In this document: piece after piece, positions 1,857 through 32,701 of the stretch
Layout of the letters: every line of letters starts with the position of its first letter
Numbering within the stretch: position 1 is the first letter of the stretch
Assembly: GCA_024742665.1 (NCBI GenBank)
Contig: JANSYA010000001.1
Coordinates: 1,006,425-1,070,424, forward strand
Origin: a bacterium
Lineage (GTDB): Bacteria; Spirochaetota; Leptospiria; Leptospirales; Leptonemataceae
Direction: 5' to 3'
DNA: 64,000 bases
Notes under the pieces: generated by a model
Told to the model about the DNA's origin: nothing
Database searches by the model: none
What the model saw: the letters and a program-made list of their open reading frames with translations, nothing else
Position numbers and translations under genes: made by a program

Positions 1857-2090
1857 ATTGTTGAACCTCAGTAATTTTCTGTGTGTCTGTATATGCGGTG
1901 GTTTTGCAAAGGCCGTGCCCGACCTTCGCTCCAACGAAAGATGTGCCGTGATTTTTCTCCACTCTCGCACGAATCTTCAGCGAATGGCCGCCACGCGCTG
2001 ATTCTTCGCGAATTTTTTTTGCAGATCCCCCGACAACAATGTATGCCGCCGCTGGATTATGTCTTATTGAGGCGCTCAAAAAAAGCAAAG

Positions 2091-2137
2091 ATCCAGGAAC
2101 CTGGAATCCAAAAACCTGGACTGTACAAAATCCTGGA
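2091..2137. repeat. CCTGGA repeat cluster upstream of the sigma54 activator gene
   Basis: The 350-bp divergent gap 1857-2206 contains a perfect palindrome TCCAGG-AA-CCTGGA (2092-2105) followed by two further direct copies of CCTGGA at 2115-2120 and 2132-2137. Copies are spaced about 15-17 bp, which would suit a regulator binding on one face of the helix. No clear sigma70 promoter was seen in the gap. It could be an operator for either divergent gene or a chance low-complexity stretch. Confidence 0.35.
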
Positions 2138-2206
2138 CGAAAAATCGCTCGCGATACTCCTCCGAAGATGCCAGTCTGTTCCGTGAAACCCTTGAATCGT
2201 ACACCG

Positions 2207-5200
2207 ATGTCTAAAATCAGTGGCGTTTCCAGTCGAGAATCGCGTGCCCGACGCGCTGTTCGACCCGCCTGGTTCTTGCAGGTCATTTTTGCTACTGTAG
2301 GAACTCTTACGCTGACGGCCTGCGGTCCCGCTGATACGATTGTGACGGGGGCGGCGGGCCCGATTGATCTGAGCGGTCGAGATCTGCCCGGCCGAATGCT
2401 CGTGCATCCCGAATTTTTTGTGGAGCGGGGCGAGCAGATCGCCAGCGCTCTGACGATTCGCGACGTGGCGCGCCCCGACTTCGATGGCTTCGGTCCCGCG
2501 CCGACTCCACGCCTGAACTTCGGCTTCATTCAGGATCCAATCTGGGTGCGCTTTCAAATTCGCGGAGGAGCGAGCGCTGAGCGTCTGCTCGAAATCGGCT
2601 TCGCGTTGATCGATCGGATTGATCTATATCTGGTCGCGCCGAACGGGCGCACTGTCAGTCGGGACCGGGCCGGAGTTAGTTCGGCCTTCGCGCTGCGGGA
2701 TCGCCCGTATCGCTATTATATTTTCGAGCTGCGGCCGCCGGACAACCGCACGCACACGGTCTATCTTCGGCTGGAAACCCGCAACGCCCTGGTGGTGCCG
2801 CTCGCCCTCTGGAGCGAGGCGGCCTTCCAGCAGATCGATCACCGGCTGCAGTTCGCGCTGGGCCTGTACTACGGCGTCATCGCCGTGATGATCCTGTACA
2901 ATTTGTTTTTATTTTTTACGATCCGCGATCGCAGCTATATCTATTACGTTGGGACTTTGATCGCGGTCCACGGTATGTTTCAGCTTTGCATCGACGGGCT
3001 GGTGCCGGAACTCTTGCCGTACGAATTCCTGCGTTCCGGTCGTGCGATCGCGCAGCTCACCGCCGGCTCGGTCAGCATCGGTCTGGTCTTCGCCCTGCTG
3101 TTCTGTCGGTCCTTTCTCGATACGCCGCGCAACGCGGCCCGCCTGGATCCCGTACTGCGAGTGCTGGCGGTCGTGCATCTGTTCGCCGTGCCGCTGATGT
3201 TTCTTCTGGATTCCTACGTCGTGTTTCAGTGGATCGTTTTTCTGGGCATGGTCGCGGTGTGCTGGTTTTTGATCGCCGGTTTCGCCGCTTTGCGCGCTGG
3301 TTATCGTCCGGCGCGCTTCTATTTACTGGCGTGGCTTTTGCTGTCGGTTGGCGGATTTTTGTACGGTTTGAAATCGATGGGCTGGATTCCGAGCACTGAA
3401 GTTTCCGAATACGCCCTGCAGGTCGGTCTGGCGATCGAAGCCTGGCTCTTGTCTCTGGCCTTAGGTGACCGCTTTCAAACATTAAAGCAGGGCGTGATCG
3501 AAGCCCAGGACGAAGCGCTGGCGCTGGAATACCAGGCCCGGGAAACCGAGAAACTGAAAGATGAAATCTTCGCTCTGGAGTCGATGGAGCCGTCGGAAGG
3601 GGAACGGGCGGGCCGGGACGCGGAAGAAGCGCCTGTCAATGACGGCAGCCTGGGAGTACTGCTCGAAAAGATTCTGGCGTCCCTGCACCGATTGCTGCGC
3701 TTCGAACGGGGCTTTATCGTCGTTTCCGATCGCGAAGACCGCCTCCACTGGCGCAGCGTCGGCGCCATGCCGGCCGGCCTGAATACGATTCTCAGCGGCG
3801 AGGAATTTATTCAGAAGTTCCTCAAGATGCCGGCGGACTTTTTCGCGTATTTGAACTCGGTCTTTTTCCTGGAGCGCGGCCCCCGGGCGAGCGAATCGGA
3901 GACGGCGTCGCGCGTGGCACAGGAACACGCCGAGACCCTGGCGACGATGTCGCGGATCGTCGAAGCGCTTGAGCGCGAAAAATTCCATCTCGCGATTCCG
4001 CTTTCGTTTCGTCGCCAGACTTTCGGCTATGTGATCTTAAGCAAAAAGACCAGCGGCGCATCCTACGATTCCGGGGAAATTACGATTCTGGAAAGCTTTC
4101 GCCTGTCCCTGGCGCTCGCCGTGCGCAATGCGATTTTATACGAACAGATCAAACGTCTGCGGGGCCGCGCCGAGGAAAAAGCGCGCCGCCTTTCCGATTA
4201 TTTCAGCGATATGCGCGAAGTCGTCAAATATCGCATGAGCGAAAAGACCCTGGTATTTGCGAGTCAGCGGATGGCGTATTTACTGGAGCTGGCGCAAAAG
4301 TACGCGAAACAAACTCGCCAGCCGATTTTGATTACCGGGCCGACGGGAACCGGTAAAGAATTGATCGCCCAGGCGATTCATGAAGACGGGAGCGGGGCGC
4401 AGTCGCCTTTCGTGGCCTTGAACTGCGCCGCCGTACCTGCCGGGCTATGGGAAACGGAAGTCTTCGGTTTTGAAAAAGGGGCGTTCACCGACGCGCGATC
4501 CGCCCATGCCGGTCGCGTGGAGCAGGCGGCGGGCGGCACGCTCTTCTTTGACGAAATCGGCGAGTTGCCCCTGGCGATGCAGGCGAAGATGCTGCGCCTT
4601 TTGCAAGAACGGGAATTTCAGCGAGTGGGCGGCAAAAAGAATATCCGCGCCGACTGTCGCTTCGTCTTCGCCACCCATCGCGACTTGAAAGAGCTGGTGG
4701 ACGCGGGCAGCTTTCGCGAAGATCTGTACTATCGCATTCACGTGCTGGAAATTCAGGTGCCGCCCCTCGCGGATCGTCCCGACGACATTCCGATTTTGCT
4801 GAACTATTTTTTGCAAAAGTACGCGCGCGAACTGGAGGCCCGGGTGACCGCCATCGAACCCGCCGCGATGGAGACGCTGTTGCGTTACGCCTGGCCTGGA
4901 AATATTCGCGAACTGGAAAACGCGTTGATCTATGCGCTGCTGCACGCGGCCTCGGACACGATTAGCCTGAACGATTTGCCGCCCGCGATTTCCGCGGGTT
5001 CGGTAGCAGGCCCGCTCGATCAGGATTCCGGGTCGGCGTCCTCGGATTTGTTTTATTCGGGGACTTATGACGAGATGGTGCGCGGCTTTTCGCGCAACTT
5101 GATTTTGGACGCGATCGAAAGCGCCGGCGGCGATAAACTCCAGGCGGCCCGGCGACTGGGAATCAAACGCGCGACTTTTTATTATCGATTGAAAGAACTG

Positions 5201-5212
5201 GGCATTTCATGA
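2207..5212 (+). CDS. Membrane-bound sigma54-dependent activator: 7TM-DISM, GAF, AAA+, Fis HTH
   Basis: The chosen ATG at 2207 gives 1001 residues starting with a basic segment, a hydrophobic stretch and an LTAC lipobox; an ATG at 2168 and one at 2039 are also in frame without good ribosome sites. An extracytoplasmic 7TMR-DISMED2-like sensor (about 50-195) is followed by seven membrane helices (about 213-424), a short coiled coil, a GAF-like domain (about 480-645) and a sigma54 AAA+ domain. The Walker A motif GPTGTGKE is at 711-718 and the Walker B motif is FFDEIGELP. A C-terminal Fis-type helix-turn-helix (about 962-1001) completes the chain. The sigma54-contact loop reads GAFTDA (758-763 region) instead of GAFTGA. 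It should couple an external ligand directly to sigma54 transcription at the membrane. It converges on the TIR-helicase gene with a 6-bp overlap at the stop codons. Confidence 0.85.
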   Translation: MSKISGVSSRESRARRAVRPAWFLQVIFATVGTLTLTACGPADTIVTGAAGPIDLSGRDLPGRMLVHPEFFVERGEQIASALTIRDVARPDFDGFGPAPTPRLNFGFIQDPIWVRFQIRGGASAERLLEIGFALIDRIDLYLVAPNGRTVSRDRAGVSSAFALRDRPYRYYIFELRPPDNRTHTVYLRLETRNALVVPLALWSEAAFQQIDHRLQFALGLYYGVIAVMILYNLFLFFTIRDRSYIYYVGTLIAVHGMFQLCIDGLVPELLPYEFLRSGRAIAQLTAGSVSIGLVFALLFCRSFLDTPRNAARLDPVLRVLAVVHLFAVPLMFLLDSYVVFQWIVFLGMVAVCWFLIAGFAALRAGYRPARFYLLAWLLLSVGGFLYGLKSMGWIPSTEVSEYALQVGLAIEAWLLSLALGDRFQTLKQGVIEAQDEALALEYQARETEKLKDEIFALESMEPSEGERAGRDAEEAPVNDGSLGVLLEKILASLHRLLRFERGFIVVSDREDRLHWRSVGAMPAGLNTILSGEEFIQKFLKMPADFFAYLNSVFFLERGPRASESETASRVAQEHAETLATMSRIVEALEREKFHLAIPLSFRRQTFGYVILSKKTSGASYDSGEITILESFRLSLALAVRNAILYEQIKRLRGRAEEKARRLSDYFSDMREVVKYRMSEKTLVFASQRMAYLLELAQKYAKQTRQPILITGPTGTGKELIAQAIHEDGSGAQSPFVALNCAAVPAGLWETEVFGFEKGAFTDARSAHAGRVEQAAGGTLFFDEIGELPLAMQAKMLRLLQEREFQRVGGKKNIRADCRFVFATHRDLKELVDAGSFREDLYYRIHVLEIQVPPLADRPDDIPILLNYFLQKYARELEARVTAIEPAAMETLLRYAWPGNIRELENALIYALLHAASDTISLNDLPPAISAGSVAGPLDQDSGSASSDLFYSGTYDEMVRGFSRNLILDAIESAGGDKLQAARRLGIKRATFYYRLKELGIS

Positions 5213-8200
5213 TTTGTCGTTTCGAGCCGCGCTGATGTCGAAGAGCCGGTCCTCATCTAATATTTCCGCGCCGGGGAGAATTTCCGCCAGATCGTATTCC
5301 TGATCGTAGATCAAGAACGCTTTTTCGCGAAAGCGCGTAAGGGCTACATAAAATTCGTTTAGATCGCGCAGGGAGTGATCGATATCCGTGTGAATCATGC
5401 GCGCCCGGCGAAAACGAGTATGTCGCTTGATCTTTTCGTTGTTCGCTTCGAGGGACTGCTGCAGGCGTTCGAACATAATGGCGTCCAGCTGGTAGCGTCG
5501 ATCGCCGGGCACGTCGTACTTTAGAATCAAAGACTTGAAGTCGTGAGAAAGAAAGCGATTGTACATATCGTGTAGCTGACCGAGCAGTGCTCCCGTGATT
5601 TCCTTTTCCTGCAGCGCGTCGACGATGAAACGAATGCCGGGATCTTCCGATCGAACGCTCGCATTCGGGCGGCTGTTCAGGAAGTACACTAAATCATCGA
5701 GAGGGCCGGTGTCGCTTTGGAAGCGCAGGTAGCTGATGCCCGCGAGATATTTCGCATAGTATTCGATCATTACGTCGCAAAATTCGTCCAGGCGTTTCAG
5801 GGTTACGCCGTCGCGCAGGTACATATAATACTTCATGAAGCAATACTGGGGAAATAGAACGACGCCTGCGCGAAACTCAAGCCCTTTGATCGCGAATGGA
5901 TTGTAGATGTCGACCAGCAGATCTTTTTTGAGTTTGTCGTACCAGCCCGGCGTCAGGCGGCCGGTGTGCCGGCGGCCGTAGTTCTGAGGATCGAAGAAGA
6001 TGATCACGACTTCGTCGTACGCGTAGACTTTGCGCAGCTCGGTGACGATTTTCTTCGCGACGCTGATCTGTCGAATACCGACCGAAGGCACCAGGTGCAC
6101 CGTCCCGCCCCCGAAGGCGTAGTTCGGCGTGCGCTGCACTTGATAGGTCATGGCCTTGCCGGTACTCATGCGAATCATATCTTCGGCGTGTTCGAGCATG
6201 ATACGCCGGTGGTCGTACGCGATTTCGGAAATTTCGCGCGCCATTCGATAGCAATAGCTCAGCTTCTGGTGCTTGATTTCGAGCAATTGATCCCAGAAAG
6301 CGAGATCGGTTTCGGTATGATAGATGCTCTGGTGCTCGTCATAGGTACAGGTCAGCGTCGCGCCGCTGGCCTGTACGGCGCGAATGATTTTGATAATATA
6401 ATTGTCTTCGTCGCGAGTGGGGAAGTCCTGGAACTCGTCGAAGAATACGTCCGTTACGCGAAATTTTTCCTGGCGACCCCGGAAGAGCTCCCAGTAAATT
6501 AACTTGCGATCTTCGTACTTTAGACCGAGTTCGCCGCGGGTTTTGCGCGCGAAGAAATCCCGCACGTCTTCGATTAATATGCGCCCGGGGTCCACGTTGA
6601 GTTTTTCCAGCATATCGCGCATATTCGCGGCGACGCTTTTCGTGAAGGCCAGAAATACGACTTTGAAATTGCGATCGCTCTGTTCGCGCTTTTGAATCGC
6701 GTGGGCGATGCGATGAGCCAGCACGACGGTTTTGCCGGTGCCGGGACCGCCCTGGATAAACATGATCTGGGCGGGGTGGGCCGTTACCTTGCTCTGCAGG
6801 GGATGTAGAAATAAGCGCCAGGTGTCCATGGGATAGCTGAGGGCCTGGAAGAGATCGTGATCGTCGTTTAAGAGCGCAATGTTGCTTTGAATGAATCCGG
6901 TCGACGCGCGGCTCGTCGCTTTGTATTCGGCGTAGGTTTCGGAATCGATGTCGTTGAAGGCCGCTTCTTTGATTTCAGGAGCGAGCTGACTCATATCCGT
7001 GGCCTTGCCTGGAGTCGGCGGATTGGATCTGGCTTCGTCGTTTTCAGGGCCGGCCGCCAGGGCCAGGTCGGGAGCCCGGCTGACCAGATGTACCAGACGC
7101 CGATCTTTTTTTGTTTCGGATACGGGCGTTTCGAAAACTTCGATGAAGTCTTCCAGATTCGTAGAGATCTGATGTCGGCGGCACCAGTCGTTCACGGAAA
7201 CAGGCGGACCGATATAGAGAATGACGTACGTCGATTTTAAGCGCGCGATAATGCTCGTTACGCTCTGGCAAACCGTGACGAAGCTGAGCTCGATTTCTTC
7301 CGAGTGCTTGTGGATTTCGACGTAGGGGATTTCGAGTTCGGTTCGCAGCTGGAAGCACGCCAGATTCGCCAGGAATTTCTGCCAGGATTCCAGCTTGCGC
7401 GAATATTTCAGCGCGGCCTGGTGCAGGGCGATGCGCGGAATCTCCTGGGACGTGTCGCCGCTCGCATCCGCTTCGTCTGGATCGGCCTCTGGTTGACTTC
7501 TGTTTTCGTTTGCGTCGGTGGGCGCGACCAGGCTTTCGCTTTCTTCTGAATAAATAAAACGTTCTTTGGTCAGCTTGAGCGAATCGCCGCCGGGATTTGC
7601 GCGCGTCGTCAGAGCTTCTCGGATCAGCAGCATCTCCGGCTGCCGCTGATCTAAAACATTTTTCTGAAACCAGAACCACACCGCAATAAATTCGATCAAC
7701 AGGTTGCCCGAGCGTTTGCGGCTGATCGCTTCGTCCAGATCGTGACTGACCAGATGGCACTGCTGTATTATTTTCCGGAGAGCTTTTAAGATACGAAGAT
7801 CCCGCGTCGTCGCGCGCAGGTGGCGGATGAGCTGTTTCACAGGCGCGCTACGAGCCTCTGCTTCGCCGTGGCTCTTGCGATAGACCAGTCGCAGCAAAAG
7901 GATCGTGCACTGCTGGAGGTACGCCGAGGTCTGGCGCGGCCGACCGTTTTCCAGGCCGTCGTGTGCGCCGGCAAGGAGCTTATAAAAACGGAAATCGAAT
8001 CCAGGTGCATTCGCGACTTGCGCCTGGTCCGGTCCCGACGCTTTGCTTTCCAGTTGAATGGTCGGGGCGCCGCCGCCAGGTGCATCATTGTCGCTGTCCG
8101 CGTGCTCTCGCATTCGACGGTGCAGTCCGGCGTTTAAGGCGCGGATCAGATTGTCAAAGCCGCCTTCGCGATACAAACGCACCGGTTGAAATTCTTTCAG

Positions 8201-8557
8201 GCGTTCGGGCAGCGCGCAGGCTTCGAGTAAAACCGGAATCAAATAGATATCGTCTTCGAGTAGATTTTGCAGAACGTCCAGCGCGTCGCGAATTTCTTTT
8301 TGCACGCGACCGCGCCTTCGCGCGACGTTATCGCTGACGCAGGCCAGAAAAAAATCGGAGTCGGCGATCGCATCTTCGATCGCCTGTTTACGTTTTTCCC
8401 CCGGCAGGATGTCGCGTTCATCGAGCCAGGGACGCCAGCCCGCCGCCTGCATTTGATCGTAGAGCTTTTCGACCTGCTCGAAATCTTCTTCCGAATAACA
8501 CAAAAAGACGCGCGGCTGCGGAGGCGATGCGCTGCTATTGGGCTGATTGGTACTCAT
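5207..8557 (-). CDS. TIR domain fused to UvrD-like superfamily 1 helicase
   Basis: A protein of 1116 residues. Residues 16-150 are a TIR fold (RVFLCYSEED at strand A, WLDERDILPGE, then QKEIRDAL with Glu88 at the position of the usual NADase glutamate). Residues about 190-560 are a helical region I do not recognise. Residues about 590-1116 are an SF1 helicase: Walker A GGPGTGKT (603-610), Walker B DEFQD (707-711), a motif-V-like stretch IKGLEFRAGVV and motif VI VALTR (1071-1075). It is the second gene of an operon, 12 bp after the small TIR gene. TIR domains in bacterial immunity commonly cleave or cyclise NAD after an infection trigger, and UvrD-like helicases occur as sensors or effectors in systems such as Gabija. 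By inference this is a defence protein in which the helicase senses nucleic acid and TIR acts on NAD. Confidence 0.85.
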   Translation of the reverse strand: MSTNQPNSSASPPQPRVFLCYSEEDFEQVEKLYDQMQAAGWRPWLDERDILPGEKRKQAIEDAIADSDFFLACVSDNVARRRGRVQKEIRDALDVLQNLLEDDIYLIPVLLEACALPERLKEFQPVRLYREGGFDNLIRALNAGLHRRMREHADSDNDAPGGGAPTIQLESKASGPDQAQVANAPGFDFRFYKLLAGAHDGLENGRPRQTSAYLQQCTILLLRLVYRKSHGEAEARSAPVKQLIRHLRATTRDLRILKALRKIIQQCHLVSHDLDEAISRKRSGNLLIEFIAVWFWFQKNVLDQRQPEMLLIREALTTRANPGGDSLKLTKERFIYSEESESLVAPTDANENRSQPEADPDEADASGDTSQEIPRIALHQAALKYSRKLESWQKFLANLACFQLRTELEIPYVEIHKHSEEIELSFVTVCQSVTSIIARLKSTYVILYIGPPVSVNDWCRRHQISTNLEDFIEVFETPVSETKKDRRLVHLVSRAPDLALAAGPENDEARSNPPTPGKATDMSQLAPEIKEAAFNDIDSETYAEYKATSRASTGFIQSNIALLNDDHDLFQALSYPMDTWRLFLHPLQSKVTAHPAQIMFIQGGPGTGKTVVLAHRIAHAIQKREQSDRNFKVVFLAFTKSVAANMRDMLEKLNVDPGRILIEDVRDFFARKTRGELGLKYEDRKLIYWELFRGRQEKFRVTDVFFDEFQDFPTRDEDNYIIKIIRAVQASGATLTCTYDEHQSIYHTETDLAFWDQLLEIKHQKLSYCYRMAREISEIAYDHRRIMLEHAEDMIRMSTGKAMTYQVQRTPNYAFGGGTVHLVPSVGIRQISVAKKIVTELRKVYAYDEVVIIFFDPQNYGRRHTGRLTPGWYDKLKKDLLVDIYNPFAIKGLEFRAGVVLFPQYCFMKYYMYLRDGVTLKRLDEFCDVMIEYYAKYLAGISYLRFQSDTGPLDDLVYFLNSRPNASVRSEDPGIRFIVDALQEKEITGALLGQLHDMYNRFLSHDFKSLILKYDVPGDRRYQLDAIMFERLQQSLEANNEKIKRHTRFRRARMIHTDIDHSLRDLNEFYVALTRFREKAFLIYDQEYDLAEILPGAEILDEDRLFDISAARNDKS

Positions 8558-8569
8558 ACGACCCGAAAA

Positions 8570-8989
8570 TCAGGCGCGGCGTTCGAAGCCGGCCCGGATC
8601 GCTCCCGCGAGCTTAGACGCCCAGTCTTTGCGGCGACAGTCGACGTACTGAAAATCGCGCAGAGCCCGTGGAATCGGGCAGTCTTCGAGAAGCGCTGGAA
8701 TTAAATATACGTCGGACTCCAGATAGTTGTCCCGGTGTTCCAGAGCCGTGCGAATTTCTTTTTGTAAGAAGCCGCGTTTGTCTACGGATCGCGGCGAGAG
8801 GCATATGACGACGAAGGCGGCGTCTTCCAGCGCGTTGTGAATGGCGACGGCCCACTGTTCGCCGGCAATCAAATCGTGCACGTCCATCCAGGGGCGAAAG
8901 CCGGTCAGGCGTAGAAAGGCGTAGATGCGTTCCGCGAACTCCTGATCTTCGCGAGCGTAGCTGATGAAAATTCTGTTCCCGGATTGCAC
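8570..8989 (-). CDS. Stand-alone TIR domain protein
   Basis: A 139-residue protein that is almost entirely a TIR domain: RIFISYARED (strand A), RPWMDVHDLIAGE (BB-loop region), VVICLSP, and FLQKEIRTAL with Glu78 aligned to the catalytic glutamate of NAD-cleaving TIRs. The start is a GTG at 8989; no in-frame ATG lies upstream and the fold begins at residue 6, so a longer N-terminus is unlikely. No strong ribosome site is visible. It is clearly related to the TIR domain of the next gene (shared WxD...GE and QKEIR patterns), suggesting duplication or a TIR-TIR partnership. A strong inverted repeat lies 20-51 bp upstream. Confidence 0.85.
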   Translation of the reverse strand: MQSGNRIFISYAREDQEFAERIYAFLRLTGFRPWMDVHDLIAGEQWAVAIHNALEDAAFVVICLSPRSVDKRGFLQKEIRTALEHRDNYLESDVYLIPALLEDCPIPRALRDFQYVDCRRKDWASKLAGAIRAGFERRA

Positions 8990-9264: not shown

Positions 9265-10581
9265 ATGAAGAATAGTCACAACGAAACACAAACTGAATCG
9301 CCAGCGCAGTCGGGCCTTGGGCGAAAAGCAGGGGCGCTGCTCAAACCGGTCGTATTTTTATCGCTGCCGCTCGTTATTTTTCTGGCGCTGTTGCACTTCG
9401 GCTTCATGGCTCTGGTCGCAATCGAAGACGTGCCCGAGTTCAACTTTCAGTTCGCTTTAACCGGCTTTGGTCAGATGGGCGCTGACTTAGAAGACAGCGA
9501 CGAAATTGTAGTGCTGCCGCCGAATTCTTATTTCCGTAAATCCATGCCGCACGGCCTGAGTCTCAGCGACAATCAGGGCAACTCGATCACGCACTATCAC
9601 GGCGTGCGTCGCAACCAGCCGTTCGAAAAAGAGAAGGGGCCCGGTATAAAACGCGTCCTGACCATCGGCGATAGCTTCACCTGGGGCGCCGGCCTTTCGG
9701 ACGAGCAGACTTTTCCGGCGATGTTAGAGGAGCGACTGAACGCTTCGCTTCCGGCGGGCGCGCGGAAAGTCGAAGTGTTGAACGCGGGGATCGTTTCCTC
9801 GACGATTACGAATTCCTATGAGAGCCTTATCAATCACGACCTGGCCTTCAAGCCCGACGTTGTCGTCCTGACCTTTTGCGATAACGATATTTCCGATCTG
9901 GCTTCCGACACCAGCATATCCCCGGGGCTGTACGAATTTCTACGCAAGGGCGTATGGTTCGGACCGATTCGATATTTTTTCGGGAAGAGCATTCAGCAAA
10001 GACGCCGTTCTATCGTCGAGAGCGTGCATACAAACGAAGGCATGGATCTGACCGGCGGCCGCTTCGGCGTAAAGGCGAAGGCGACGCATATCAATTGGCC
10101 TGAAGACGTGCCGGCTTTTATGAAGAGCGCCGGCGAGATTTCGACGAACGATATCGATAAACTCTTAACCCTGTATTATTATTCAACGACCGCCTGGATC
10201 ATGCCCTTTACGGGCCCCGATCAAAAAGACACCTGGGCGCTCTGGAAGCAGTGGGAAGATGAGCTCTTGAAAATCAAAGCGCTCGGCCAGGAACACAACT
10301 TTGAAGTCGTGGTGCATGTGTATCCGATTTTCGCGCGGATTTACGAAGCGCAGTTCGATGATCAAAAGACACCGGAAAAAATTATTCGCGAAATCGCCGA
10401 ACGCAACGACATCCGCGTCGTCGATCCCTTAAAGGAGTTTCGTCGGCAGGAGGCTGCCAGTCGGGCCGCGGGACAGCCCCTGTATTTTTATCCGGAAGAT
10501 TCGCATCCGACCGCGGCCGGTTCGCGCATCGTCGCAGCAGAGCTTGAGCCGGTGCTGCGCGAAATGCTCGCTTCTGAGTGA
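9265..10581 (+). CDS. Membrane-anchored SGNH/GDSL-type hydrolase
   Basis: A 438-residue protein with an N-terminal membrane segment (about residues 29-55) and an exported SGNH-fold domain. Block I appears as TIGDSFTWGAG (the nucleophile Ser), block III as TFCDNDISD, and the catalytic Asp/His pair as DSHPTAAG near the C-terminus. Such proteins are esterases or O-acetyl transfer/removal enzymes acting on lipids or surface polysaccharides; the natural substrate cannot be read from sequence. It is a monocistronic plus-strand gene between the TIR operon and groEL. Confidence 0.75.
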   Translation: MKNSHNETQTESPAQSGLGRKAGALLKPVVFLSLPLVIFLALLHFGFMALVAIEDVPEFNFQFALTGFGQMGADLEDSDEIVVLPPNSYFRKSMPHGLSLSDNQGNSITHYHGVRRNQPFEKEKGPGIKRVLTIGDSFTWGAGLSDEQTFPAMLEERLNASLPAGARKVEVLNAGIVSSTITNSYESLINHDLAFKPDVVVLTFCDNDISDLASDTSISPGLYEFLRKGVWFGPIRYFFGKSIQQRRRSIVESVHTNEGMDLTGGRFGVKAKATHINWPEDVPAFMKSAGEISTNDIDKLLTLYYYSTTAWIMPFTGPDQKDTWALWKQWEDELLKIKALGQEHNFEVVVHVYPIFARIYEAQFDDQKTPEKIIREIAERNDIRVVDPLKEFRRQEAASRAAGQPLYFYPEDSHPTAAGSRIVAAELEPVLREMLASE

Positions 10582-27152: not shown

Positions 27153-28190
27153 ATGAAAGCAGCAGTACTGTACAAAGACCGCACGGATCTGAAAATCGAA
27201 GACTGGAAGTCGAAAAGCCCCGGCCCCGGCGAAGTGAAAGTTCGCGTGCACAGCTGCGGCGTATGCGGATCCGACGTGCACATCACCGTGCACAAGATCA
27301 TGTCTTTGAAAGAATATCCGCGGATTCCCGGTCACGAAGCGAGCGGGGTTGTCGCGGAAGTCGGCGAGGGCGTCACGGATTTCGCCGACGGCCAGCGCGT
27401 CGTCATCGCGGCGGGTTTTAGCTGCGGCGATTGCCCCGCCTGCGGTCGACAGCGCGAAAACGCGTGCGAAGGCACCGGCGTCTTCGGTTTCGAGCGCGAC
27501 GGCGCGTACGCCGAAGAAGTGATCGTGCCGGCCCGCTGTCTGGTTTCGCTGCCGGACGAAATTCCTTTCGATCAGGGGGCGATCATGGCCGATGCGGTCT
27601 CCACGCCCTATCACGCTTTGAAATACGCCGGCCGCATGGAAGCGGGCGAAGTCGTGGCGGTGTTCGGCTGCGGCGGCCTGGGCATTCACGCGGTGCTGCT
27701 TGCGAAGGCCCTGGGCGCGGGCAAGGTCGTGGCCATCGACGTGGACGACGGCGCTTTGCAAAACGCGGCGGCCTTCGGCGCCGACGATATCTTAAACGTG
27801 CGCGATATGAAGCACGTCGGCAAGACGCTGAAAGAAAAAACCGGCGGCGTCGACATAGTGCTGGAGTTCTCCGGACACTATGGCAACGTCGAGCAGTCCC
27901 TGCGGGCCATGAACCCGCTCGGCCGCATCGTCATGGTGGGCATCGGTCGCGGTAAGATTACGCTGCAATTGCCTTTGCAAATTACGAGTCGCCAGATTTC
28001 GCTGATTGGATCTTTCGGCTCCGACATGCGCGCGATTCCCGATTTAATGCAGCTCTTTCTCGACAAAAAGCTGGACCTCAGCCGTTCGATCACCTCGCAC
28101 CATCCGCTGGAAGAATTGAACGACTGTCTGGAAAACCTGCACCATCGCAACGGCAATCCGATTCGTTATATCATCGAACCCGGCTCCTGA
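27153..28190 (+). CDS. Zinc-dependent medium-chain alcohol dehydrogenase
   Basis: A 345-residue MDR enzyme. The catalytic zinc site is built from CGSD (Cys near residue 38) and GHEASGVVAEVG. The structural zinc loop is CGDCPACGRQRENAC with four cysteines, and the NAD(P)-binding glycine motif is GCGGLG. The product most resembles sorbitol or alcohol dehydrogenases that oxidise secondary alcohols, but substrate cannot be assigned. A purine-rich ribosome site precedes the ATG. It converges on the efflux fusion gene and overlaps its end by 25 bp. Confidence 0.88.
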   Translation: MKAAVLYKDRTDLKIEDWKSKSPGPGEVKVRVHSCGVCGSDVHITVHKIMSLKEYPRIPGHEASGVVAEVGEGVTDFADGQRVVIAAGFSCGDCPACGRQRENACEGTGVFGFERDGAYAEEVIVPARCLVSLPDEIPFDQGAIMADAVSTPYHALKYAGRMEAGEVVAVFGCGGLGIHAVLLAKALGAGKVVAIDVDDGALQNAAAFGADDILNVRDMKHVGKTLKEKTGGVDIVLEFSGHYGNVEQSLRAMNPLGRIVMVGIGRGKITLQLPLQITSRQISLIGSFGSDMRAIPDLMQLFLDKKLDLSRSITSHHPLEELNDCLENLHHRNGNPIRYIIEPGS

Positions 28191-31100
28191 CCGACGGCGA
28201 GTTCGTAGCGAATCCAGGCCGCGCGAAATTCAATGCGTGCGAGCGCGCGCTTTTCCCGGCGTTCGCGCAAGACGTTTTCGGCGTCGAGCAAATCGTTTAA
28301 CCGCCCCTGGCCGCGCCGGTAGCGCGCCGCTTCCAATCGCACTGTGCGCGCCGCGCGATTGACCGCTCGCTGGCTGCGGGCCAGGTCCGCCCGGGACGTC
28401 GCAATGCCGCCGATCGCCTCGCGAATTTGAACGCCGATTCCCTGGATCGCATCCGTCCGCCTGCTTTCCAGAGCGCTTAGCTCGGCGAGCAGCGCTTCTT
28501 TGCGAACGCTGCGAGTGCCGCCTTCGAAGATCGGTAAGGTCATGCCGAAACTAAACGAAAACCAATCGTCTTCCTGTAAGAGTCCGTTGTCGACGTAGGT
28601 CCACTGGCCTTTGGCGAAGAGTCGCGGCAGAGCTTCGTACGAAAGTCCTTCGATTTCGACTTTCTTCGCGCGCACTAAAATATTCAGCGCCTGTAGATCG
28701 ATGCGCTGCTTCAGGGCGAGGCCGCGCGAATCTTCGTACTCCGGCGCGGGCCCCGTCGGCAAATCCGTGAGGGCTGCCGGGGCGACTGGCTGTGCATAGC
28801 CCATGGCCCGTCCCAGCGCGAGATCCGCGACGGGAATGCCGGCGTTCAACTCCAGGCTACCCTGACGCGCGTCGTCCAGAGCCAGATTGATGTTCAGCAA
28901 ATCGAGTTCGGCGACGCGACCGAATTCGAAGAGACGGCGAACTTCGCGCGAACGCCGGGCGAGAGTGCCCTGAAATTGCTGCAGGGCCTTGAGTCGCACG
29001 CGCAATCGCAGCGCATCGAAATAACGGTTCGCGCCCTCGGCCATCGCAAGCTGTCGGCGTCGCTTTGCGTCCAACTGCGCCGCCTCGGCGCGGTCTTCGG
29101 CGGCCGGAACATAAAACCACATATTCGCCGGATCCAGCAGCGGCTGCACGATTTCAATCGCGCCCTGAGCGAACTGCCGCGGTTCGCCCGGCACGTCGAC
29201 GCCGAGAAGAGCCGGCCCGGGAATCTTGCGATCGCGCCACTCGTAGCTGAGTCCCGCGCCGACTTTCGGAAAGTACGTCGAACGCGAAAGCGCTTCGGCT
29301 CGCGCACCGGCGGCATCGGCTTCGGCGTAGGATCCGCGCACCGGCGGCGCCTGACCGGCTGCGAGCAATACGTCTTCGAGTGCAACGTTCTCAAGCTTCG
29401 GCGGAGTCTCTGCTTGCGATTGCGATTGCGTTTGCGATTGCGTTTGCGATTGCGTTTGCGATTGCGATTGCGATTGCGATTGCGATTGCGATTGCGTTTG
29501 CGCCGCAAGCGATCGCGTCGGTGCAAGCAGCGCGAGCAGTCCCAGGGTCGCCGCCGGCAGCAGCCACCAGACTCCAATCGATCCCGAACGCAGGCTCCGT
29601 AATTCGCGGGCCTTGTTCGCTTCGCCGGACGCTGCGCGCATCAGCCAGAGCCGGTAGAGCGCGGGGATCACCAGGATGGTCAACACCGTCGACAGAGCCA
29701 GGCCGGAGATGATCGCCCAGGCGAAGGGCGGCCACAGACTCGCCGATGTAAAAGCCAGCGGCAGGAGTCCGGTGATCGTCGTCAGAGTCGTCAATAAGAT
29801 CGGTCGCAGGCGCCGGCCGATCGCGTACTGCAGAGCCGCCGTAGAATCTGCGCCGTCCCGACGCTGGCCGTCGATGGCGTCGATTAACAGAATGCCGTTG
29901 TTTGCGACGATACCCGCGAGAGCCAGACTGCCGAGCAGCGAAAGAAATCCGAAGGGTTGTCCGCTCAGCACCAGGCCCGGAGCGACGCCGATAATCGCGA
30001 GAGGAACCGCGACCAAAATGATCGCGACTTTTTTGAACGAACGAAATTCAATCAGCAGCGATACCAATAGCAACGCCAGGCCCGCGGGCAGAGCGCGCGC
30101 GATGGCCTGATTGGCCTGGCCCGATTCGGCTTCTTCGCCGCCGTACTCGATGCGAATCGCCGGGTCGAGGGCCAGTTCCGGCAGGCGCTGTTGAAACTTC
30201 GCGAGCAGCGGGGCGACGCTGGTACCCGGCAGAGTTTCCGCCAGCACGCGCACCATGGTTTGACCGTTGCGATGATTGATCACGGAGGGCTGCCACTCCA
30301 GACCGGGCGCTGCTACGTCGCTTACGTTGATGTCGGCCACCCGGGTGCGACCGACGTAGGCGCCGTACAGCTCCTCGTAGTCCAGCTCTTCGCCTTTGCT
30401 GGATCGCAATAGAATCGGAATCGGATCTTCCCCGGCGCGATACTGGCCGACCTCCAGGCCGCGAGTGCGGCCGAGCAGCACTGAGGTAACCTGACTGCGG
30501 GCGAAACCGAACTGCAGCGAATTCGCATCGCCGACGGTGAACTTTATATTCGGTACGCCCTGACCGAAATCGCTGCGCACGGCGTCGACGCCCGCGATAT
30601 CGCGTAGCAGGGCGACCACGCGATTCGCCGCGTTACCGGCGACGGCATGCTCCGCGTGGATTACGCGAACTTCAATCGGCGCCCTGGTCGGCGGCCCCTG
30701 CTGGAGTTCGCGGACGATCACCGTGCCGTCGAAAATCATTTCGCGGCCGATTTGCTCGATCCGCTGGCGCATAGCCGGCGCGAGTTCAAAAGATTCCAGT
30801 TCGACGATCGCCTGGGCGACGTGCGGGCTACGAGGGCTGCGCACGAGATTATAATAAAACTGCGGCGTGCTGCGGCCGACGAACGTTGAGACCTTCGTAA
30901 CGCCTGGCAGTTCCCCGATCTTTTCGCCGATAGCGAAGGCCCGGTCCCGCGTCGCACGAAAGTGCGTGCCTTCCGGCAGGCGCATGTCCAGCACGACCTG
31001 ATTGCGATCCGCCGCCGGAAAAAACTTAGACTGCACGAAAGCAAAGCTTGCGCCGGCCAGGGCGAGCACTCCCAGGGCGCCGGCCAGTACGCTCAGCGGC

Positions 31101-32701
31101 CGGCGAAAGATTAGCGCGCCGAAGAAATCGCCGAAGGGACGCGTAAAATTCCACTTACGGGCCGCGCCGGGTTTCAGCACGAAGAGCGCCAGAGACGGCG
31201 TCACCAGCACCGAAAATAAATAACTCACGCTCAAAGTCAGCATGGCGATCAGCGGAATGCTCCGCGTGAAATCGGCCGTCGCGCCGCTCGCTCCGAACAT
31301 CGGGAGAAAGGCGGCGATGGTCGTGCCGGTCGCCGTCGCGAGGGGCAAAGCGAAACCGCGCACGGTCGACACCGCGGCCGCCTGGAGCTCTTCGCCCGCG
31401 TCGATCTGTTCCTGCATATTTTCGACGATCACGATGACGTTGTCGATCAGCAGTCCCAGGGACAGCACGAAGGCCGCGATCGAAATTTGTTGCAGCACGC
31501 CGTCACCCGCGGCGTACACTCCGAGCGCGATGACGCTGATGACCGGCACCAGCAGCGCGGTCAAAAGTCCGATGCGAAATCCCATCGCGAAAATTACGAC
31601 GCAGGCGACGATCAAAATCCCGCTGAAGAGCGAGAAGGCGAGTCCCGAGATGCGATCCGAAACATAGTCGGGTTGAAAGTTTACGATTTCGATTTTCAGT
31701 CCGGGTTTCGCGGCCTCGTTTTCGCCGTCGCCTGTTTCGATCTTTTCGATTGCCTGCGCCCCGTCCAGTCGCGCCTGGAATTCGGCGATGGCGCCCCGCA
31801 CGGCGACGCCGAAATCGATTAGATTAATATTCTGGAGCGGAATGACGCCGACTCCGACCGCCGGGCGGCCGTCGACGAACATCGCCTGGGTGCGGGGCAG
31901 GGCGATTGTCCGGCTGACTCGCGCCAGTTCGCCCAGGGCGATGACCTCGCCGGAATCGAGCAGCACCGGGAACTGTTGAATTTCCGCCAGGTCCGCAAAC
32001 GAAGAATTGGTGCGCACGCTGATGGACTGGTCGGCCATGCGGACGGACCCGGCGGGAATGGCGCGGTTGCTTTCGAAGAGCTGTTGCGAAAGCGCGGCGT
32101 AGTTCAGGCCGCGTTCGCGCATCGCGCGGTCGTCGAGTTCGATGCTGATCTCTTCGCCGGGATCGGTTATGATCGTGACGCCGGAAACGTTCTGCAGGCG
32201 CAGGAGCTCCGCTTTCAAATCTTCGGCTGTGTCTCGCAATAGCAGCGCGTCCGTCGAGCCCGTGATCGCCAGCACGATCGCTTCTAAGTCGATGACCTTG
32301 CGATTTAAGTCGTAGGCGGAAACCCCCGGCGGAAAATCCCGGGCCGCCCGGTCGAGGGCGACGCGAATGTCGCGCCACGCTTCGTTGATGTCCGACGCGC
32401 TCGATAGCGAATCTTTTAACTCCAGGCGACCGATCATTACCTGCGGGCGGCTGGTCGTTTCGAATGATTTGATTTCGCCGATTTCCGAGAGGCGGTCTTC
32501 GACCGCTTGCACCACCAGCCGTTCCATTTCGCGCGTATTCGCTCCGGGATAGACGATGGTCAGAATTCCGTTGCGTTCTTTCAGGCGGGGATCTTCTTCG
32601 ATCGGCATGGTCAAATAGGCGAGCACTCCGGAGGCGATCAGCACTCCGGTGAGCGTAAAAAATACAGGCCGCAGCCGAACGATTGCATGGGCAAGATTCA
32701 T
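28166..32701 (-). CDS. RND efflux pump fused in frame to a TolC-type outer-membrane channel
   Basis: A single frame of 1511 codons. Residues 1 to about 1030 form a complete RND (AcrB/HAE) transporter: the N-terminal helix, two periplasmic porter loops, TM4 with LGLLIDNVIVIVEN (proton-relay Asp) and a second membrane bundle ending in LVIPALYRLWLM. A basic segment and a hydrophobic stretch (about 1044-1060) end in a signal-peptidase-like site RSLAA. A Gln-Ser/Gln-Thr repeat linker follows (about 1068-1096), then an outer-membrane efflux (TolC/OEP) domain of about 400 residues with paired coiled-coil halves. These two proteins are normally separate and in different membranes. The linker could allow cleavage into two mature proteins. 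The upstream adaptor gene overlaps by 4 bp. Confidence 0.9.
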   Translation of the reverse strand: MNLAHAIVRLRPVFFTLTGVLIASGVLAYLTMPIEEDPRLKERNGILTIVYPGANTREMERLVVQAVEDRLSEIGEIKSFETTSRPQVMIGRLELKDSLSSASDINEAWRDIRVALDRAARDFPPGVSAYDLNRKVIDLEAIVLAITGSTDALLLRDTAEDLKAELLRLQNVSGVTIITDPGEEISIELDDRAMRERGLNYAALSQQLFESNRAIPAGSVRMADQSISVRTNSSFADLAEIQQFPVLLDSGEVIALGELARVSRTIALPRTQAMFVDGRPAVGVGVIPLQNINLIDFGVAVRGAIAEFQARLDGAQAIEKIETGDGENEAAKPGLKIEIVNFQPDYVSDRISGLAFSLFSGILIVACVVIFAMGFRIGLLTALLVPVISVIALGVYAAGDGVLQQISIAAFVLSLGLLIDNVIVIVENMQEQIDAGEELQAAAVSTVRGFALPLATATGTTIAAFLPMFGASGATADFTRSIPLIAMLTLSVSYLFSVLVTPSLALFVLKPGAARKWNFTRPFGDFFGALIFRRPLSVLAGALGVLALAGASFAFVQSKFFPAADRNQVVLDMRLPEGTHFRATRDRAFAIGEKIGELPGVTKVSTFVGRSTPQFYYNLVRSPRSPHVAQAIVELESFELAPAMRQRIEQIGREMIFDGTVIVRELQQGPPTRAPIEVRVIHAEHAVAGNAANRVVALLRDIAGVDAVRSDFGQGVPNIKFTVGDANSLQFGFARSQVTSVLLGRTRGLEVGQYRAGEDPIPILLRSSKGEELDYEELYGAYVGRTRVADINVSDVAAPGLEWQPSVINHRNGQTMVRVLAETLPGTSVAPLLAKFQQRLPELALDPAIRIEYGGEEAESGQANQAIARALPAGLALLLVSLLIEFRSFKKVAIILVAVPLAIIGVAPGLVLSGQPFGFLSLLGSLALAGIVANNGILLIDAIDGQRRDGADSTAALQYAIGRRLRPILLTTLTTITGLLPLAFTSASLWPPFAWAIISGLALSTVLTILVIPALYRLWLMRAASGEANKARELRSLRSGSIGVWWLLPAATLGLLALLAPTRSLAAQTQSQSQSQSQSQSQTQSQTQSQTQSQSQAETPPKLENVALEDVLLAAGQAPPVRGSYAEADAAGARAEALSRSTYFPKVGAGLSYEWRDRKIPGPALLGVDVPGEPRQFAQGAIEIVQPLLDPANMWFYVPAAEDRAEAAQLDAKRRRQLAMAEGANRYFDALRLRVRLKALQQFQGTLARRSREVRRLFEFGRVAELDLLNINLALDDARQGSLELNAGIPVADLALGRAMGYAQPVAPAALTDLPTGPAPEYEDSRGLALKQRIDLQALNILVRAKKVEIEGLSYEALPRLFAKGQWTYVDNGLLQEDDWFSFSFGMTLPIFEGGTRSVRKEALLAELSALESRRTDAIQGIGVQIREAIGGIATSRADLARSQRAVNRAARTVRLEAARYRRGQGRLNDLLDAENVLRERREKRALARIEFRAAWIRYELAVGQEPGSMI
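29413..29502 (-). repeat. Hexanucleotide microsatellite encoding the Gln-Ser/Thr linker
   Basis: About fifteen copies of the six-base unit CGCAAT (sometimes CGCAAA), read on the minus strand, encode alternating Gln with Ser or Thr between the RND and TolC parts. As the unit is six bases, gain or loss changes linker length but not frame. Confidence 0.85.

What the first reader, a model, noticed from the sequence alone, without database searches (positions are those of the whole stretch)
5207..8989. Two-gene TIR / TIR-helicase operon: candidate undescribed immune system
A GTG-started 139-residue TIR protein is followed after 12 bp by a 1116-residue protein that joins a TIR domain to a complete SF1 helicase (Walker A 603-610, DEFQD 707-711, VALTR 1071-1075) through about 370 unrecognised residues. 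Both TIRs keep the Glu in QKEIR, where NADase TIRs have their catalytic Glu. I recall TIR in Thoeris, short-Argonaute, CBASS and TIR-NLR systems and UvrD-like helicases in Gabija, but no described system with this gene pair. Inference: the helicase senses foreign DNA or replication intermediates and the TIRs deplete NAD or make a signal.
Basis: partly seen in the sequence, partly recalled or inferred. Interest (0 to 1): 0.88.

Follow-up and report, generated by a model that had tools for sequence, protein, structure and literature searches.

The report
Helicase-armed two-TIR phage defence operon
A bacterial chromosome carries two neighbouring genes, one for a small TIR protein and one that joins a TIR domain to a helicase likely related to the phage-defence protein ArmD; the pair is predicted to sense invading nucleic acid and then likely to stop the infection by destroying the cell's NAD, and the paper searches made here showed no report of such a pair.

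Summary
The gene pair is real: a 139-aa TIR protein, a 12-bp gap, then a 1116-aa protein. The '370 unrecognised residues' hold a helical bundle whose best structural matches are HEPN domains (187-300) and a RelE-type fold (375-476), giving TIR - HEPN-like - RelE-like - SF1 helicase. Of 73 TIR-less helicases reached from a distant family member, 70 carry a RelE-like N-domain. A plasmid relative fits ArmD of the tested anti-phage system ARMADA type II, Walker residues K266 and D454 included. The window family differs: RelE arginines replaced in 9 of 9, about 90 residues missing before motif II, a helical insert between motifs V and VI; no ArmC-like partner was found in its genome. Eight other proteins of this architecture were found, one a fragment. 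A second TIR/large-protein pair shares a contig length. The catalytic-type Glu is kept in 24 of 24 short and 6 of 9 fused TIRs. Best reading: a helicase-triggered, probably NAD-depleting immune operon; new variant of a known kind; function untested; neighbours are not recognisable defence genes.

The parts
8570..8989 (-). Stand-alone TIR protein, 139 aa, GTG start
   Evidence: Pfam TIR_2 7.7e-29; clade of six close TIRs, support 98/100
8756..8758 (-). Glu78, candidate NADase catalytic residue of the short TIR
   Evidence: E in 24 of 24 proteins found with the short TIR; aligned with the Glu of tir-1
5207..8557 (-). TIR - HEPN-like - RelE-like - SF1 helicase protein, 1116 aa
8117..8518 (-). Fused TIR domain (residues 14-147)
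8294..8296 (-). Glu88, candidate catalytic residue of the fused TIR
   Evidence: E in 6 of 9 family members, Q in 3
7658..7999 (-). Helical bundle with HEPN-like fold (residues 187-300)
7130..7435 (-). RelE-type fold, degenerate (residues 375-476)
5249..6880 (-). SF1 (UvrD-like) helicase region (residues 560-1103)
6728..6751 (-). Walker A / motif I GGPGTGKT (603-610)
6425..6439 (-). Motif II DEFQD (707-711)
5348..5845 (-). Helical insert between motifs V and VI (905-1070)
   Evidence: 165-180 residues between the motifs in 8 members against 30-41 in the 12 relatives measured; helices in the model
5333..5347 (-). Motif VI VALTR (1071-1075)

Best explanation
This is a two-gene operon predicted to be an anti-phage immune system, in which a helicase likely related to ArmD would sense invading nucleic acid and switch on TIR domains that likely destroy NAD. 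Shown: the gene pair, intact helicase motor motifs, TIR glutamates in place in both proteins, kinship of the helicase with RelE-UvrD helicases, and loss of the RelE arginines. Predicted from models: the HEPN-like and RelE-like folds. Inferred: the modified SF1 motor binds replication or recombination intermediates and, with ATP, changes shape; the HEPN-like and RelE-like modules, apparently no longer RNases, serve as scaffold or binding surfaces; clustered fused TIRs then recruit the stand-alone TIR into a mixed TIR assembly whose shared active sites consume NAD and abort the infection. The fused TIR would act mainly as nucleator and the separate TIR as effector.
For: Pair likely recurs: adjacent in the own genome, and P0004 and P0016 have the same longest contig length, 690,173 bp. 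Short TIRs P0011-P0016 form one clade (98/100) apart from the fused TIRs, so two TIRs seem to be kept side by side. Glu kept in 24 of 24 proteins found with the short TIR, but Q in 3 of 9 fused ones, which fits a division of labour. Fused TIR model matches SPARTA TIRs first, then Hydra TRR-2 and SARM1; SPARTA and SARM1 hydrolyse NAD (recalled). 70 of 73 TIR-less helicases reached from P0007 have a RelE-like N-domain. Plasmid helicase L066 has K266 and D454 exactly where ArmD does and follows a DruE-like helicase. In ARMADA type II, K266A abolished protection and D454N reduced it. Patchy spread: 1 of 48 class genomes.
Against: No defence island seen: neighbours are a lipase-like protein, a sigma-54 activator, an SGNH hydrolase and (recalled) GroESL. 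No function tested. P0007-P0009 lost the fused Glu, and no short TIR has their contig lengths. HEPN assignment rests on fold alone; helical bundles can reach such Z by chance (note), and a profile comparison with one DUF4145 protein was negative (P 0.88). A RelE profile finds P0001 only weakly (0.0054; best of nine shuffled controls 1.5), P0002-P0006 at 0.22-3.1 and P0007-P0009 not at all; Foldseek gives nothing under E 0.001 for the middle part. Model confidence is low around Glu88.
Confidence: 0.5

Rival explanations
1. Signalling system: the TIRs make a cyclic ADP-ribose-type signal that activates an effector encoded elsewhere, as in Thoeris.
For: Partial matches of the short TIR to Thoeris models (ThcB4 1.6e-9; ThsB 4.1e-5). 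TIRs of this fold can do either (recalled).
Against: No second effector gene in the operon. No STALD match in the genome, but the control was silent, so this is inconclusive.
Confidence: 0.15
2. Toxin-antitoxin-like pair: the large protein is toxic and the short TIR holds it inactive until infection removes it.
For: Small gene first, 12-bp gap, two TIRs that could pair with each other.
Against: The catalytic-type Glu is kept in 6 of 6 TIRs of the close clade and 24 of 24 found in all, unexpected for a pure inhibitor.
Confidence: 0.1
3. DNA repair or stress protein unrelated to phage: an SF1 helicase whose TIR adjusts NAD use after DNA damage.
For: Neighbourhood of ordinary-looking chromosomal genes and ordinary GC3.
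Against: No match in the 47 other class genomes; likely kin ArmD is a defence protein; only eight relatives found among 5.8 billion proteins, with a search of limited sensitivity.
Confidence: 0.14
4. Translation-linked system: the RelE-like and HEPN-like modules still bind ribosome or mRNA, and the helicase acts on RNA, so that stalled or phage-altered translation is the trigger.
For: RelE-type and HEPN-like folds; SLFN-g3 helicase match 6.2e-7, over its cut-off, and SLFN11/14 among structural matches.
Against: RelE arginines replaced in 9 of 9; the core fits DNA helicases of the UvrD/Rep type best.
Confidence: 0.1

Closest known systems
ArmD of ARMADA type II (PMC12458937, passages read)
   Same: RelE-type domain followed by a UvrD/GajB-like helicase with intact Walker A and B; P0001 against the ArmD-like L066 protein 2e-18 over residues 442-653. 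That L066 is ArmD rests on the residue numbers and the gene order.
   Different: ArmD has no TIR and works with ArmA, ArmB and ArmC, each required; here TIR and a HEPN-like bundle are fused on, RelE arginines are lost, about 90 residues before motif II are missing, and no ArmC-like gene was found in the genome
Gabija (GajA-GajB)
   Different: No OLD/TOPRIM nuclease among the flanking proteins checked; the effector domain is TIR and is fused to the helicase
SPARTA (TIR-APAZ + short Argonaute)
   Different: Sensor is an SF1 helicase, not Argonaute; no APAZ or Ago match
Nezha (SIR2 + HerA; PMC11559045, passages read)
   Same: NAD-destroying domain coupled to a helicase-family ATPase in two genes
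   Different: SIR2 instead of TIR, HerA instead of SF1, no fusion, no second NADase gene
DUF4145-RelE-UvrD helicase (P0108, 882 aa; 1 of the 73)
   Same: Same order: DUF4145 (a HEPN family by PMC3710099), RelE-like domain, helicase
   Different: No TIR; 142 residues before motif II where the window family has 54-66; no profile match between the two helical domains

Membership tests
ARMADA type II | RelE-like domain + UvrD-type helicase (ArmD) | tested here: met
   RelE-like domain degenerate
ARMADA type II | YprA/DruE-like helicase ArmC in the cluster | tested here: not met
   1923 residues of the L066 ArmC-like protein as query find only two motif matches, 68 and 78 query residues, best 1.0e-6, in the 93%-complete genome
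ARMADA type II | BrxHII-like ArmA and PglX-like ArmB beside it | tested here: not met
   flanking ORFs 837-1970, 2039-5212, 9265-10581 show other families; rest of genome not searched for these two
Gabija | GajA OLD-type nuclease next to the helicase | tested here: not met
   the three flanking ORFs; genome not searched
Gabija | helicase matches GajB models along its length | tested here: not met
   best GajB hit 1.3e-10, residues 584-662 around Walker A
Thoeris | TIR protein (ThsB) with an effector (e.g. ThsA, STALD domain) | tested here: inconclusive
   no STALD match in the genome, but nothing rang in the 14 control genomes; partial TIR hits only
SPARTA / short Argonaute | TIR-APAZ with a short Argonaute partner | tested here: not met
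   PADLOC Argonaute models match only in their TIR part; no Argonaute match in the three flanking ORFs; genome not searched
TIR NADases | TIR fold | tested here: met
TIR NADases | catalytic-type Glu in place | tested here: met
   short 24 of 24; fused 6 of 9, window included
TIR NADases | NAD cleavage | not testable with these tools
   needs enzyme assay
SF1A UvrD/Rep helicases | motor motifs I-VI | tested here: met
SF1A UvrD/Rep helicases | 1B region before motif II | tested here: not met
   54-66 residues in the 8 family members that reach motif II, 140-171 in 35 relatives
RelE-type RNases | RelE fold | tested here: met
RelE-type RNases | conserved arginines of the domain | tested here: not met
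   positions 428 and 434: Thr in 9 of 9; Arg in 30 and 31 of 35 relatives
HEPN domains | HEPN four-helix fold | tested here: inconclusive
HEPN domains | Rx4-6H motif | tested here: inconclusive
   Rx6H in the same helix in 6 of 9, in two registers; absent there in P0007-P0009

The most novel reading that the evidence does not exclude
A new class of immune receptor in which an ArmD-type SF1 motor, stripped of its 1B region and carrying two retired toxin-fold modules (HEPN-like and RelE-like), seeds a mixed TIR filament: the fused TIR nucleates, a dedicated second TIR polymerises onto it and destroys NAD. It would be a helicase counterpart of TIR-NLR and SPARTA, with helicase translocation as the licence signal.
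Probability: 0.28. Interest if true: 0.82.

Novelty: new variant of a known kind. Interest (0 to 1): 0.62.

Why it matters
It would join two large branches of prokaryotic immunity, TIR NAD-based killing and UvrD/ArmD-type helicase sensing, in one polypeptide. The RelE-type domain of ArmD is called a predicted RNase in the passages read, with no test of it there; here the domain persists with its arginines gone while Trp458 stays in 9 of 9, which suggests a structural job and makes that question testable. The fused Glu-to-Gln change in one clade offers a natural test of whether fused TIRs act as nucleators and separate TIRs as enzymes.

Tried and rejected
Gabija, SPARTA, Thoeris and ARMADA membership: see Membership tests. 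In the VIA listing of the whole model the middle part was barely tested (note), so it was folded alone. Promoter-like and terminator-like sites: 4 against a shuffled mean of 2.2 (sd 1.6) and 7 against 6.6. Repeats: short and imperfect only. SGNH neighbour as a synteny anchor: found in 2 of 30 order genomes, the own one included, so of no use. HEPN by sequence: P 0.88 against one DUF4145 protein. PA1372 (PMC4410645, passages), a helicase in conflict with a plasmid, was considered as kin but its sequence was not compared. Dropped rows: 35 of the 73 helicase relatives went into alignment A2; of these P0061, P0104, P0055 and P0108 were left out of the RelE profile; P0006 is truncated and was not counted for motif spacing. 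P0035, a truncated close relative of P0007, was not counted among the 73.

Full report
OBSERVATION. Both ORFs exist as described: a 139-aa GTG-started TIR protein (8570-8989, minus strand) and, 12 bp on, a 1116-aa protein (5207-8557). The large gene ends tail to tail with a sigma-54 activator gene, the two overlapping in the palindrome TCATGA. Pfam finds TIR_2 in both and UvrD-helicase/AAA_19 in the large protein. The stated motif positions are exact. GC3 is ordinary for the window and only short imperfect repeats occur around the operon, so it looks long resident.

WHAT HAS CHANGED. In the RelE-like domain, positions 428 and 434 are Thr in 9 of 9 family members but Arg in 30 and 31 of 35 relatives, while Trp458 stays in 9 of 9 and is Trp in 31 of 35 relatives. 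In the motor, 54-66 residues separate residue 653 from motif II in the eight members that reach it, against 140-171 in 35 relatives: the 1B region (label recalled) is gone. Between motifs V and VI lie 165-180 residues in those eight against 30-41 in the 12 relatives measured. These features are shared by members only about 32% identical, so they mark the family. Motor motifs are intact.

NEAREST KNOWN SYSTEM. Plasmid matches led to an E. coli helicase of 704 aa (L066). Its Walker residues are K266 and D454, the numbers given for ArmD of ARMADA type II in passages of the preprint PMC12458937, and it follows a large helicase that matches DruE models (8.3e-75); in Pseudanabaena a DruE-like helicase likewise precedes a UvrD-type helicase. 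[quoted passage not shown] The window protein matches the L066 protein at 2e-18 over residues 442-653, and that protein as query finds the window gene in its genome at 1.1e-15. The ArmC-like neighbour (1923 residues) finds only two short helicase-motif matches there. So the window operon is not ARMADA, but its motor is of that kind.

DISTRIBUTION. 1 of 48 genomes of its class with P0005 as query; no other full-length match among those listed for 392 phylum genomes; none in phages or viral contigs. One relative's source names a Leptospirales bacterium (P0006); the window genome itself is unnamed. Flanking genes are not recognisable defence genes, which is evidence against a defence-island reading.

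MECHANISM. Likely: nucleic-acid sensing by the motor, then TIR clustering, recruitment of the second TIR, NAD loss and abortive infection. The first step rests on kinship with ArmD and likeness to GajB; the last on the TIR fold and Glu; the middle is inference. Signalling, toxin-antitoxin, repair and translation-linked rivals are listed with tests.

LITERATURE. Ten searches of the held library showed, in listings that were capped, no system with TIR and a UvrD-type helicase in one protein or operon. Only passages were read: PMC12458937, PMC11559045, PMC4410645, PMC3710099, PMC10952713, PMC10853773, PMC9503650, PMC12839542. Against full novelty: a table in PMC3710099 (2013) lists among the fusion partners of DUF4145 'UvrD Helicase (endoV alpha subunit), TIR and ATPase (Thiorhodococcus drewsii AZ1)'; whether any of these share one protein is not clear from the passage. 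The library lacks most subscription papers.

VERDICT. Real, rare, coherent, not seen as a system in what could be searched; parts known, combination new. New variant of a known kind, interest 0.62. After checking, confidence was set to 0.50 (from 0.52) and interest to 0.62 (from 0.63) because of the low model confidence at Glu88 and the 2013 table entry.

Noticed in passing
window 28166-32701 (-): One 1511-aa ORF reads like an RND efflux pump joined through a (Gln-Ser)-rich stretch to a TolC-like outer-membrane factor; such a fusion seems unusual (reading by eye, no family search run).
   Followed up: no
L066 (NZ_CP114794.1 75468-88163) and other plasmids: 15 Escherichia and 2 Klebsiella plasmid records match over the same query range with an 'ATP-dependent helicase'; the one opened (IncY replicon) is ArmD-like, so ARMADA type II may travel on such plasmids.
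   Followed up: partly
P0035 (588 aa, 13,373-bp contig): A close relative of P0007 (88% identity) that starts after the RelE-like domain and lacks TIR and the middle domains; truncated gene or split protein.
   Followed up: no
L079 2314-3927 (G000 contig 18): A third TIR protein of the same genome, 537 aa, with the TIR match near its C-terminus; no helicase gene is evident beside it among ORFs of 180 aa or more.
   Followed up: partly
P0108 residues 1-165: DUF4145-RelE-UvrD helicase whose N-terminus matches PADLOC candidate PDC-M16A (1.1e-10), hinting at a wider HEPN-RelE-helicase defence group.
   Followed up: no
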